Positions 35,831 to 60,840 of a stretch of DNA of 64,000 bases are shown one piece after another. Under the pieces are notes generated by a model, which had not been told where the DNA came from, did no database searches, and saw nothing but the letters and a program-made list of their open reading frames with translations. The stretch comes from Loripinus fragilis. Lineage: Eukaryota; Mollusca; Bivalvia; Lucinida; Lucinidae. Within the stretch, counting starts at the first letter, position 1, and each line of letters begins with the position of its first letter. The DNA is taken from NCBI GenBank assembly GCA_964019695.1, contig OZ026524.1:14872309-14936308 (forward strand). The letters are read 5' to 3'. Made by a program: the position numbers and the translations under genes.

Positions 35831-36123
35831 AATAAATTTCTTAATTGACTTAAAGTATTGTGAAACAATTCATGAGAGGAATGGTAAAACTCTATTTTGG
35901 TATATTAAAAATTCAGGTGAGATTCTTAATAAGGTAAAATGTCTACATCAATAAATTCCATTGAAGTCTACCGCCCATAAAGAACGCTAAATGGACCATT
36001 AGAAGTGGTTTACCTTCTTAATCAAGGTCTCAATGATGTTAAGACATGTGCGCATATAGTTGCTGCTATGAGCTCTTATTATGTGGAATACGGTTTTCAA
36101 TATAGATAAATACGTGTACATAC

Positions 36124-36356
36124 ATTTTAAACCCCTTCGCTGCCTGAATAATGTGTGTGTCCACTTTTCCCAGGGCTACTCGACTAGGCGTGTAAACATT
36201 CTTCACGCTATCGAGTCTAGGAGCTCGTTCTTCGCGCTGGGTATAACTTCCAAGAAACATGTCAGTCTGGTTCGAAGACCTCCCCCAGGACAAATGATAG
36301 TACTGTGACGAAAGACTGTATCCAGATGCTTTTGGGAACACTTCACTCAGAGCGCC
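36124..36356 (-). CDS. GT92 gene, exon D: C-terminal part of catalytic domain
   Basis: The exon follows acceptor ttaatattttcag (AG at 36358-36357) and reads in phase 0 as GALSEVFPKASGYSLSSQYY, HLSWGRSSNQTDMFLGSYTQ, REERAPRLDSVKNVYTPSRV and ALGKVDTHIIQAAKGFK. This resembles the GT92 section with a Trp-Gly after a hydrophobic strand, then 'R...R....K.VY.P.RV....VH.......G'. Phase 0 agrees with exon C, whose last residues RTLKQVL run directly into GALSEVF. The end is set at donor GTATGT (GT at 36123-36122), giving phase 2. Other GT dinucleotides within about 10 bases are possible, so the 3' boundary is the least certain part. The family usually continues with a His-His-Tyr-Arg-like segment, which was not found on the minus strand to the left. 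Confidence 0.82.
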
Positions 36357-52200: not shown

Positions 52201-52470
52201 AAATGTGGTAGATTGCTTACTGGTCAGTCAACTGGGACGAGATCGCGACATACATGTATCTGGTACGATTCATGAAAATCATTATTTTTTGTCAACCATG
52301 ATCAATTGACAGTGCGTCCTTTGTGTTGATTCCAGCCCTGATAGACATGGTTTTATTTGAAAAGAAAAATAGGTAAATGTTCGAAATTTTAAAACATAAA
52401 TATTTGGGAAAACTTTTGAAATGGCGTGGCAAACTGTTAAGACTGAACTGGTCCCTGGGGTTGAGGCTGT

Positions 52471-52690
52471 AGGGTAAAGTTAGGTAACTTCGAACATCAG
52501 GTTAATTCGGACATGCATTTGCAAAAACAGTGGGAATCTAGAATGAGCCGTCTCATCAGGATATTAAGAGCTGTCTAATCAGGATTTTCACTGTTTACAT
52601 AGTTAGTTTATTTTTTTTATTCCAATAATTAATTATGAAACAAACAACCTCGTTATCCGAATTCAGCTGACCGTCCGAATTTACCCGACT
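52471..52690 (+). mobile_element. MITE, family J, downstream of GT92 exon C
   Basis: It begins agggtaaagttaggtaactt and ends gtccgaatttacccgactt. The central hairpin-like part is 'gccgtctcatcaggat...ctaatcaggattttcactgt'. The copy at 52919-53122 is its inverse. The end lies about 15 bases from the exon C donor. Confidence 0.85.
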
Positions 52691-52704
52691 TAAACTTAAC
52701 TTAC

Positions 52705-52877
52705 CAAAACCTGCTTCAGCGTTCTGTTATTTGAGGGTATGAAGAATTCATCGTGATCAATAATTCCAAAATACTGGTATCCTGACATCCGTTCAAAGGA
52801 ATCGTCCACTACCACTTGCTGGTCATTCCACCTCTGGTTGTGTTTGGTGGCGAACACTGGTAGTCTTGGGTAAGTTT
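52705..52877 (-). CDS. GT92 gene, exon C: DxD-type motif exon
   Basis: The 173-bp exon begins after acceptor tatgtttaag (AG at 52879-52878) and ends at donor GTAAGT (GT at 52704-52703). Entering with two bases, it completes Glu with the previous exon and then reads 57 codons: TYPRLPVFATKHNQRWNDQQ, VVVDDSFERMSGYQYFGIID, HDEFFIPSNNRTLKQVL. The motif IIDHDEFFIP matches the acidic nucleotide-sugar and metal-binding motif seen in GT92 enzymes as 'D.DEF(I/V).P'. A nearer AG at 52866-52865 would give the wrong phase, which is why the upstream acceptor was chosen. The exon ends in phase 0. It is bracketed by two inverted copies of one MITE (52471-52690 and 52919-53122). Confidence 0.88.
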
Positions 52878-52918
52878 CTTAAACATAAATTACATAAACA
52901 CAATCGAGAGTGATATAA

Positions 52919-53122
52919 GGTAAAGTCAGACCGTCTGCTTAATTTGGTCAGTGACCATGTTTGTTTCATGTTTTGATTATTGGAATAAAAAATAAATTAA
53001 CTAAGCAAACAGCGAAAATCCTGATGGGACGGCTCCTAAAGAGCCGTTTCATCTGGACTTCCACTGTTTGCAAATGTATATCCGAATTTACATGATGTCC
53101 GAAGTTACCCGAATTTACCCTA
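52919..53122 (-). mobile_element. MITE, family J, upstream of GT92 exon C (inverted)
   Basis: On the minus strand it reads tagggtaaattcgggtaact, 'cggacatcatgtaaattcgga', 'cagtggaagtccagatgaaa', 'gccgtcccatcaggattttc', 'aatttattttttattccaat', in register with 52471-52690. It starts about 40 bases upstream of the exon C acceptor. Confidence 0.85.
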
Positions 53123-53906
53123 ATGCCATTAAATAGGGTAAAGTCGGGCAATCACGGACATCGGGCTACTTCGGACATTTTTAAAACACGGAAAATTGAT
53201 TTATGTAGTCAGCGCTACCCCATTAAAGTTGGTAGTGTTGCAAAGAACCGTTATATTCCTGTAGAACGGTGTACATGTACAACCAGTTGATATATCGGTT
53301 ACACCCGGATCCCGTTCACGCGGAATTTCAAGGTACCCTCGTGGCATCAAGAAAGTTTGGGAGCTGCGAAAATACAAAAAGATTTTCACAAGTGAAGAAA
53401 ACTGCCAAAATGTATGAACTGGAAATAACGTTTTTTTCTACTTTTGGAAAAGTTAATACATGACCTATAAAAAAGATTTATGAACAAATGCCAGTAAAAC
53501 AATCCAAATTTTACGATTTTCAGATGTCCGACTTTACACCGATGGTGAAATATTCGTTGAGTACAAATTCGGACAATCATTTTTTTCATTTGTATTTCAT
53601 CATCATGCATGGTTTAAAAGTGATTTTCTAGTCTGTTGCACCTGAATAAATCTCCTCAAAGGCAGTAGAATTAATTCAGAGACGAATGGTCATGCCTCGT
53701 CATGAAGTTTCTTTTGGCCGCTGCAGATATGGCACGTGAAATTTCCTGCGCCACATGTGCCACATGTAAAGTCTCGAGATTTTTCCCGCCAACTGTCAAT
53801 ATCTACTGAATCTTAGTGATCCTATTTAATGGCAGGTACTTCATACTCCCTGTCCCGAATTCTGTCTCAGGCACATGCCTATGCAATATACTATGACACA
53901 AATGGC

Positions 53907-60050: not shown

Positions 60051-60776
60051 CCTCGGCAGCTGGTTCGTAGAATGTCAAATCCAGGAACCCTGTGGATTCA
60101 TAGTACTTGAGCACTTTTAGAGCATCAGCATTGAGGATCTTTACGTAATAAGACACAACCTTGTCCACCCCAATATACCTATAGGTCTCCATCCATTCAA
60201 TGATTTGTTCAGGGTTTATACTACCAAAGGCTGTCTTTGTACCTATGGCTATCTTCCCTGGAGTTATCAAAGGATGGAAAGGCTTGACGTAAGACACGTC
60301 CTTCTCCTCACAACTGAAGTTATCTGCAGTCACAGCCACCTCAACAAGTGTATGCGTATCTATTGTATTATTATCATTAGACTTTAATGGTGGAGTTGTC
60401 TGAGATCCATTGTTGTGACCCCCTGCTACAGCTTTATCTCCAAATAGTGTCCTGTTGAGTTCACTCAGGTTATTGGTATTTGGACAAGCAAGGTAGTAAG
60501 ACCACATATCTGCTGCAGATTGAAATTTTCGATTCACCAATGGCGTCACCCGTTTTATTAACTTCTTGGCTCCATTGTTATATTTAAAACAACAGTAAAA
60601 TGGTGATTTAGCGAAGCTCTTTCTCTCAAAATTTCCATAGATTTTAACAAGGTCAAATGTTTTCTCATTTGAACTGTTCCCGGTCGCAGCACCAAATATG
60701 TAAAAATGTCCAAATTTCATCTTGACAAATTTTCTTTCATTTGTTATAAGAGCTGTGGTTGGAATTGGATTTATAT
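60051..60776 (-). CDS. GT92 gene, exon B: N-terminal part of catalytic domain
   Basis: This 726-bp exon is open throughout and flanked by acceptor tttacatttacag (AG at 60778-60777) and donor GTAAGT (GT at 60050-60049); both introns are phase 1. It encodes about 241 residues beginning INPIPTTALITNERKFVKM and ending ...DLTFYEPAAE. The last third contains GKIAIGTKTAFGSINPEQ, then IIEWMETYRYIGVDKVVSYY and NADALKVLKYYESTGFLDL, the typical start of a GT92 domain (a strand, then a helix with the 'E W E..R..G' pattern, then 'V..YY'). The earlier part holds a CCFKY cysteine pair and three Asn-X-Ser/Thr sites. An ATG at 60807 opens a longer reading frame, but it lies in the intron before the acceptor, so it is not taken as the start. 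The frame also runs on past the donor into TG-repeat DNA, which is not protein-like. Confidence 0.9.
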
Positions 60777-60840
60777 CTGTAAATGTAAAATGGATTATAA
60801 GAATCATAATTCTAACTTCCGTATTTCATTAGTTACACAG

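What the first reader, a model, noticed from the sequence alone, without database searches (positions are those of the whole stretch)
52471..53122. Catalytic GT92 exon bracketed by inverted copies of one MITE
Exon C (52705-52877), which carries the DxD-type motif, has a ~220-bp MITE about 15 bases past its donor and an inverted copy about 40 bases before its acceptor. In the transcript the two could pair, looping out the exon. Reverse-complementary repeats around exons are known to favour circular RNA or exon skipping (Alu pairs, for example). Loss of this exon would remove the acidic motif, and its 173-bp length would also shift the frame.
Basis: partly seen in the sequence, partly recalled or inferred. 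Interest (0 to 1): 0.8.

Follow-up and report, generated by a model that had tools for sequence, protein, structure and literature searches.

The report
Enzyme exon between two inverted transposons
Two old copies of a small transposon sit in opposite directions on either side of one exon of a sugar-transferring enzyme gene; their RNA copies could pair and occasionally disturb splicing, but a sister gene with the same pair shows the exon kept intact by selection and the transposons decaying, so this looks like a tolerated accident and not a switch.

Summary
Exon C (52705-52877, minus strand) encodes the IIDHDEF stretch of a GT92-like gene and lies between two ~210-bp MITE copies in opposite orientation (L 52470-52698, R about 52916-53122). 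They differ at about 21% of aligned sites and are predicted to pair across the exon (MFE -270.8 kcal/mol; -199.3 if pairs span at most 260 nt). Skipping the exon would shift the frame.

The pair is inherited. A paralogue on contig C19 has both MITEs at the same sites. One on C14 has the empty site for L: a TA target at intron +7/+8 beside a donor that already existed. Since the C13/C19 duplication (dS 0.165) exon C has stayed under purifying selection (8 synonymous, 2 nonsynonymous changes), while the arms diverged at roughly the neutral rate, with deletions and no consistent compensation. The family has at least 3,677 core matches; 4 of 59 copies inspected have an inverted neighbour.

This is an ordinary inverted-repeat configuration. 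It may yield some circular or skipped RNA, as such pairs do elsewhere, but evidence for a regulatory role is lacking. One lead: the C13 acceptor is TTTAAG, while 16 of 16 other exon-C loci compared have CAG or TAG. No RNA data were available.

The parts
52470..52698 (+). MITE copy L (TA target duplication at 52470-52471 and 52697-52698); in intron C-D, 6 nt past the exon C donor boundary
   Evidence: alignment with 39 other copies; empty site in the C14 paralogue L058; present at the same site in the C19 paralogue L057
52916..53122 (-). MITE copy R, inverted relative to L, in intron B-C about 38 nt upstream of exon C
   Evidence: blastn to family consensus 90.7% over 204 nt; same site in C19 L057
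52705..52877 (-). exon C of a GT92-like gene, 173 nt, encodes GYQYFGIIDHDEFFIP
   Evidence: open frame with B and D; Pfam PF01697 on spliced B-C-D; 96.5% protein identity in C19
52703..52704 (-). GT donor of exon C (GTAAGT); GTAAGC in the C14 paralogue that lacks MITE L
52878..52879 (-). AG acceptor of exon C, TTTAAG; TTCAG in C19 and C14
   Evidence: 17 exon-C loci including this one
60051..60825 (-). upstream GT92 exon B (donor GTAAGTAC) with the open frame in front of it; the true 5' end was not determined
36101..36356 (-). downstream GT92 exon D (acceptor TTTTCAG); its 3' end was not determined
53134..53275 (+). fragment of a different repeat family with a similar terminal sequence, next to R; not seen at this place in C19
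   Evidence: 27 genome matches including itself, most covering about query 5-146 of 161

Best explanation
Two independent insertions of one high-copy MITE (TA target duplication shown for L) landed in opposite orientation in the introns on either side of a GT92 exon in the ancestor of two paralogues (C13 and C19): L first, R shortly before the gene duplication. The pair is selectively near-neutral genomic clutter. Its transcript can form a long imperfect duplex across the exon (shown in silico), which probably allows low, unregulated back-splicing, skipping or A-to-I editing (inferred), while normal linear inclusion of exon C remains the functional output (inferred from purifying selection).
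For: Both MITEs lie at the same sites in C19 L057; C14 L058 has the empty L site. Shared-branch estimates put L well before the duplication (0.10 per site) and R just before it (0.01). Exon C: dN 0.015, dS 0.277; 240 codons of B+C+D: dN 0.031, dS 0.165. Arms: JC 0.107 (L, plus 35 gapped columns) and 0.158 (R), against 0.060 for exon C. Of 173 aligned arm columns, 133 pair in both genes, 10 in C13 only, 17 in C19 only, 13 in neither. Two-sided changes keeping the pair: 0 of 3 or 1 of 4 with another gap placement. Retention against simulation depends on direction (P 0.01-0.12 one way, 0.70-0.87 the other). The family is large: 3,677 core matches, control 0. Inverted neighbours in 4 of 59 copies inspected.
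Against: The pair has survived in both paralogues for the time given by dS 0.165. Pairing is still strong in both (gain -78 and -64 kcal/mol), and no other copy of at least 100 nt competes in the window. The C13 acceptor departs from that of its relatives, which could reflect altered inclusion. One simulation direction gave a slight excess of retained pairs (P 0.014 and 0.029 at two column limits; 0.027). In C14 an 83-nt piece near the place of R matches the middle of the MITE at 77% in R's orientation; if it is a decayed R, R is older than stated.
Confidence: 0.77

Rival explanations
1. The MITE duplex works as a splicing switch: it loops out exon C to give a single-exon circular RNA and/or a frameshifted transcript lacking the acidic motif, and this output matters to the animal.
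For: Strong predicted pairing that beats the two self-hairpins (-61 and -67 against about -209 for the cofolded arms). Known precedents for repeat-driven back-splicing and skipping (PMC8330042, PMC11263572). The pair is kept in two paralogues. The C13 acceptor is AAG.
Against: No consistent compensation; arms decay at roughly the neutral rate, with deletions in C19 L. Exon C is under purifying selection. Predicted gain (-78, -64) is below the mean for random inverted pairs of the family (-120 +/- 23, n=40; the two were computed differently). At 173 nt the exon would be a short single-exon circle (rice exonic circRNA mean 474 bp, passage of PMC4647462).
Confidence: 0.08
2. The main consequence of the duplex is A-to-I editing by ADAR, or dsRNA processing, in the introns, with no effect on exon C.
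For: PMC9989829 (summary and passages) reports that animal A-to-I editing mainly targets dsRNA formed by young repeats, with pairing of nearby inverted copies as the conventional source.
Against: Arms differ at about 21% of sites, and the same paper reports lower editability of diverged repeats. No RNA data here.
Confidence: 0.13
3. MITE L supplies the exon C splice donor (transposon-derived 5' splice site), because its terminus almost touches GTAAGT.
For: L ends 6 nt from the exon boundary; a gapped reading of its terminus, like that of copy L018, would run into the donor (my reading of the alignment).
Against: The C14 empty site already has GTAAGC at that place.
Confidence: 0.02

Closest known systems
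Inverted Alu pairs flanking human exons (exon circularisation and skipping; PMC11263572, passages seen)
   Same: Inverted copies of one repeat in the two introns flanking an exon, able to form an intramolecular duplex
   Different: DNA-transposon MITEs, one pair around a 173-nt exon, about 21% diverged; no transcript evidence here
Reverse complementary matches in C. elegans zip-2, Y20F4.4 and arl-13 introns (PMC8330042; abstract, sections 8 and 10 read)
   Same: Complementary intronic sequences around the exon(s); effect on both back-splicing and skipping is plausible
   Different: There deletion experiments show the effect, and in zip-2 the 13-nt match is conserved in nematode orthologues; here no experiment, and the arms decay
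MITE-flanked circRNAs of rice (PMC4647462, passages seen)
   Same: MITEs in both flanks of a potential circular exon
   Different: There only 72 of 2,354 circRNAs had MITEs on both sides, so this is a minor route even where circles are observed

Membership tests
MITE (short non-autonomous DNA transposon) | Short, high-copy, terminal inverted repeats | tested here: met
   ~210-217 bp consensus with ends TAGGGTAAAGTCGGGTAA and TTACCCGACTTTACCCTA; 3,677 core matches
MITE (short non-autonomous DNA transposon) | Target-site duplication shown by an empty site | tested here: met
   C14 L058: GGGTTGAGGCAGTAG joined to CTTACC; TA on both sides of L in C13. Met for L; for R no clean empty site was found
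Tc1/mariner-type MITE (lead: TA duplication, recalled) | Mobilised by a Tc1/mariner transposase sharing its termini | not tested
   No autonomous partner was searched for
Inverted-repeat pair driving exon circularisation or skipping | Complementary repeats in both flanking introns able to pair | tested here: met
   (pairing predicted, not observed)
Inverted-repeat pair driving exon circularisation or skipping | Back-splice or skip junctions in RNA that depend on the repeats | not testable with these tools
   no RNA-seq or wet-lab data
Inverted-repeat pair driving exon circularisation or skipping | Pairing maintained by selection (expected only if the effect is useful; not needed for the effect itself) | tested here: not met
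   only one paralogue pair was available, so power is low
Glycosyltransferase family 92 | Pfam PF01697 match above the curated cut-off | tested here: met
   52.2 bits against 23 on spliced B-C-D; exon C alone gives no match at E 1e-3

The most novel reading that the evidence does not exclude
In the C13 gene the MITE duplex, with an acceptor that has changed from CAG to AAG, shifts a real share of transcripts to exon-C circles or catalytically dead frameshifted mRNA, while the C19 sister keeps inclusion: a transposon-pair switch separating the output of two duplicate GT92 enzymes.
Probability: 0.06. Interest if true: 0.6.

Novelty: new member of a known kind. Interest (0 to 1): 0.27.

Why it matters
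If the pair did act on splicing, this locus would be a clean natural experiment: C13 and C19 carry the pair, C14 lacks L, and the exon between encodes the acidic motif of the enzyme. As it stands it mainly shows that a strong predicted duplex around a catalytic exon can sit in a gene for a long time while the exon stays under purifying selection, a caution against reading function from inverted repeats alone.

Tried and rejected
Donor made by the MITE: rejected by the C14 empty site.

Composite transposition of MITE-exon-MITE as one unit: the C19 copy is a gene copy with exons B, C and D in order on one strand and with homologous intron flank, not a moved 650-bp unit. Of the 17 genome matches of exon C DNA the surroundings of 13 were held, and besides the window only L057 has MITE copies of at least 100 nt near exon C; 4 matches were not examined.

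Exon start / donor complementarity (AACTTACC at the exon start against GGTAAGTT at the donor), which may be why the fold hides the donor: broken in C19 (AAACATACCC) and C14 (AAAGGTACCC), so taken as coincidence.

Selection on pairing: the excess of retained pairs appeared only when simulating C19 to C13 (P 0.014, 0.029, 0.118 at three column limits) and not in reverse (0.87, 0.79, 0.70).

Protein database search found 17 proteins, none covering more than 47% of the spliced query; no spliced model of inclusion or skipping came out of it. PDB by sequence: one chain at E 0.71, taken as chance. Literature searches. The search for circRNA + reverse complementary + oyster, and that for inverted repeats + dsRNA + bivalve + ADAR + introns, found 0 papers.

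The genome-wide density could not be measured from unselected sequence: only 14 kb at seven arbitrary places was obtained, with no copy in it.

Full report
The window is a stretch (C13:14872309-14936308) of an unnamed 1.99-Gb genome in 685 contigs. The gene lies on the minus strand. Exon C at 52705-52877 is bounded by AG (52879-52878) and GT (52704-52703). Spliced between B (ending 60051) and D (starting 36356) it gives an open frame containing GYQYFGIIDHDEFFIPSNNRTLKQVL. The spliced 233-aa product matches Pfam PF01697 (Glyco_transf_92) at E 8.4e-14; exon C alone gives no match at E 1e-3. Dropping the 173-nt exon shifts the frame and gives a stop after four changed residues.

The two repeats are copies of one family. 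A search with L gave 43 matches: 40 near-full-length places (itself included) and 3 short ones, with 40 of 1,345 candidates scored. I aligned the 39 other copies with the two window copies: consensus about 210-217 bp, ends TAGGGTAAAGTCGGGTAA and TTACCCGACTTTACCCTA. A 31-nt core with up to 3 mismatches occurs 3,677 times in the genome (reversed control 0); this is a lower bound, since 2 of the 39 aligned copies have more than 3 mismatches to that core. A stricter 58-nt pattern with up to 3 mismatches gave 172 matches. L and R in the window are 75.6% identical with gaps.

Predicted folding. The minus-strand RNA 52440-53150 has MFE -270.8 kcal/mol; 20 shuffles average -161 (sd 7.2). This z-score partly reflects each MITE's own hairpin: alone L gives -61.0 and R -67.3. 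The fairer comparison limits pairs to a 260-nt span, which excludes L-R pairing: -199.3, so cross-exon pairing gains about 71 kcal/mol. For 52470-53122 the gain (limit 250 nt) is -78 in C13 and -64 in C19. For 40 random inverted pairings of other copies the net cofold gain averages -120 (sd 23); the two measures are not computed identically, but nothing marks this pair as unusually strong. In both folds the C13 donor is predicted to be paired; an 8-nt complementarity between the donor and the start of the exon, which could explain this, is broken in C19 and C14.

History. The exon C DNA search returned 17 matches including self. The best other one is C19:38727731-38727949, 94% over the exon and its intron edges; L057 there carries both MITEs, L at 73% and R at 93% to the consensus, at the same places as in C13. 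C19 also has exons B and D. The next, C14:33596100 (89%), has flank GGGTTGAGGCAGTAG joined directly to CTTACC|AAAACC, the empty site of L: a TA target and a donor (GTAAGC) already present. C14 lies outside C13+C19 by exon C distance (JC 0.13-0.15 against 0.06), so absence is the older state. No clean empty site for R was found. Near that place C14 holds an 83-nt stretch matching the palindromic middle of the MITE at 77%, in R's orientation; I read it as part of another palindromic repeat, but a decayed R is not excluded. From distances over 173 common columns, L shares about 0.10 changes per site between C13 and C19, and R about 0.01: L is old, R entered shortly before the duplication.

Selection. 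C13 against C19: exon C has 8 synonymous and 2 nonsynonymous changes (dS 0.277, dN 0.015); B+C+D over 240 codons, dS 0.165, dN 0.031. The C14 comparison was gapped in B and C, so those two rows are not used. The arms: L JC 0.107 with 35 gapped columns, R 0.158, close to dS. Pair fate over 173 columns: 133 formed in both, 10 in C13 only, 17 in C19 only, 13 in neither. Two-sided changes keeping the pair: 0 of 3 or 1 of 4 (I put the one down to gap placement). Simulated neutral retention was below observed in one direction (P 0.014-0.118) and above it in the other (P 0.70-0.87) (P 0.027). With one paralogue pair this has low power, but there is no consistent sign that pairing is kept, and clear sign that the exon is.

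Base rate. Of 59 other copies with flanks (39 with about 1 kb each side, 20 with about 0.6 kb), 4 have an inverted neighbour (L020, L052 and L111 near full length, L038 partial) and 1 has a direct neighbour (L104, partial). Two rows of 67-70 nt printed as 'direct' in L020 and L052 lie inside the inverted partner (its palindromic middle) and were not counted; nor was a 41-nt terminal piece in L111. By my arithmetic from 3,677 copies in 1.987 Gb, random placement would give about 0.2% with an inverted neighbour within 1 kb, so copies seem clustered unless the true copy number is many times larger. Extrapolated from 4 of 59, a few hundred copies in the genome would have an inverted neighbour. Among 17 exon-C loci held besides the window's own (L057-L063, L084-L093; L058 and L059 overlap), only L057 has MITE copies of at least 100 nt.

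A lead. Of 17 exon-C loci compared including this one, C13 alone has TTTAAG at the acceptor; C19 and C14 have TTCAG and the other 14 end in CAG or TAG (for L061-L063 I placed the exon edge a few bases further in, by eye). A weaker acceptor about 38 nt from a MITE could lower inclusion in C13. This is inference; no splice-strength model was run.

Comparison with the known. Complementary intronic sequences promote both back-splicing and skipping in C. elegans, shown by deletions (PMC8330042; abstract, sections 8 and 10 read). Intronic inverted Alus are strongly associated with circRNAs (PMC11263572, passages). In rice, 72 of 2,354 circRNAs had MITEs in both flanks (PMC4647462, passages). In animals, dsRNA from young repeats is the main A-to-I editing substrate, with lower editability for diverged repeats (PMC9989829, summary and passages). 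The locus fits this kind anatomically; whether it works that way is untested.

Verdict. Observation confirmed, with distances corrected. It is a new example of a known configuration, with useful evolutionary dating, and of modest interest.

Noticed in passing
window 52878-52883 (acceptor of exon C): C13 alone of 17 exon-C loci compared has an AAG acceptor (TTTAAG); C19 and C14 have TTCAG, the other 14 CAG or TAG.
   Followed up: partly
L058/L059 (C14:33596100 and 33596889): The C14 GT92 gene has a second, partial exon-C-like copy about 790 bp from the first (85% identity over 134 nt).
   Followed up: no
G000, MITE copies L017-L055 and L101-L120: Close neighbours of this MITE are mostly inverted (4 inverted, 1 direct among 59 copies) and commoner than random placement of 3,677 copies would give.
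   Followed up: partly
window 53134-53275: A different repeat family (27 genome matches including itself, about 142 bp) begins with nearly the same terminal sequence as the MITE and lies 11 nt from R; it is not seen there in C19.
   Followed up: partly
G000 contigs C2, C4, C10, C11, C19, C20: GT92-like exons are greatly expanded (93 Pfam matches; 148 protein matches, with 150 of 257 candidates scored), often in clusters, including a run of long open frames on C19 at about 61-72 Mb that look intronless.
   Followed up: no
L075 (C4:73443406-73446696): Another GT92 locus carries two copies of the same MITE in the same orientation within about 1 kb.
   Followed up: no
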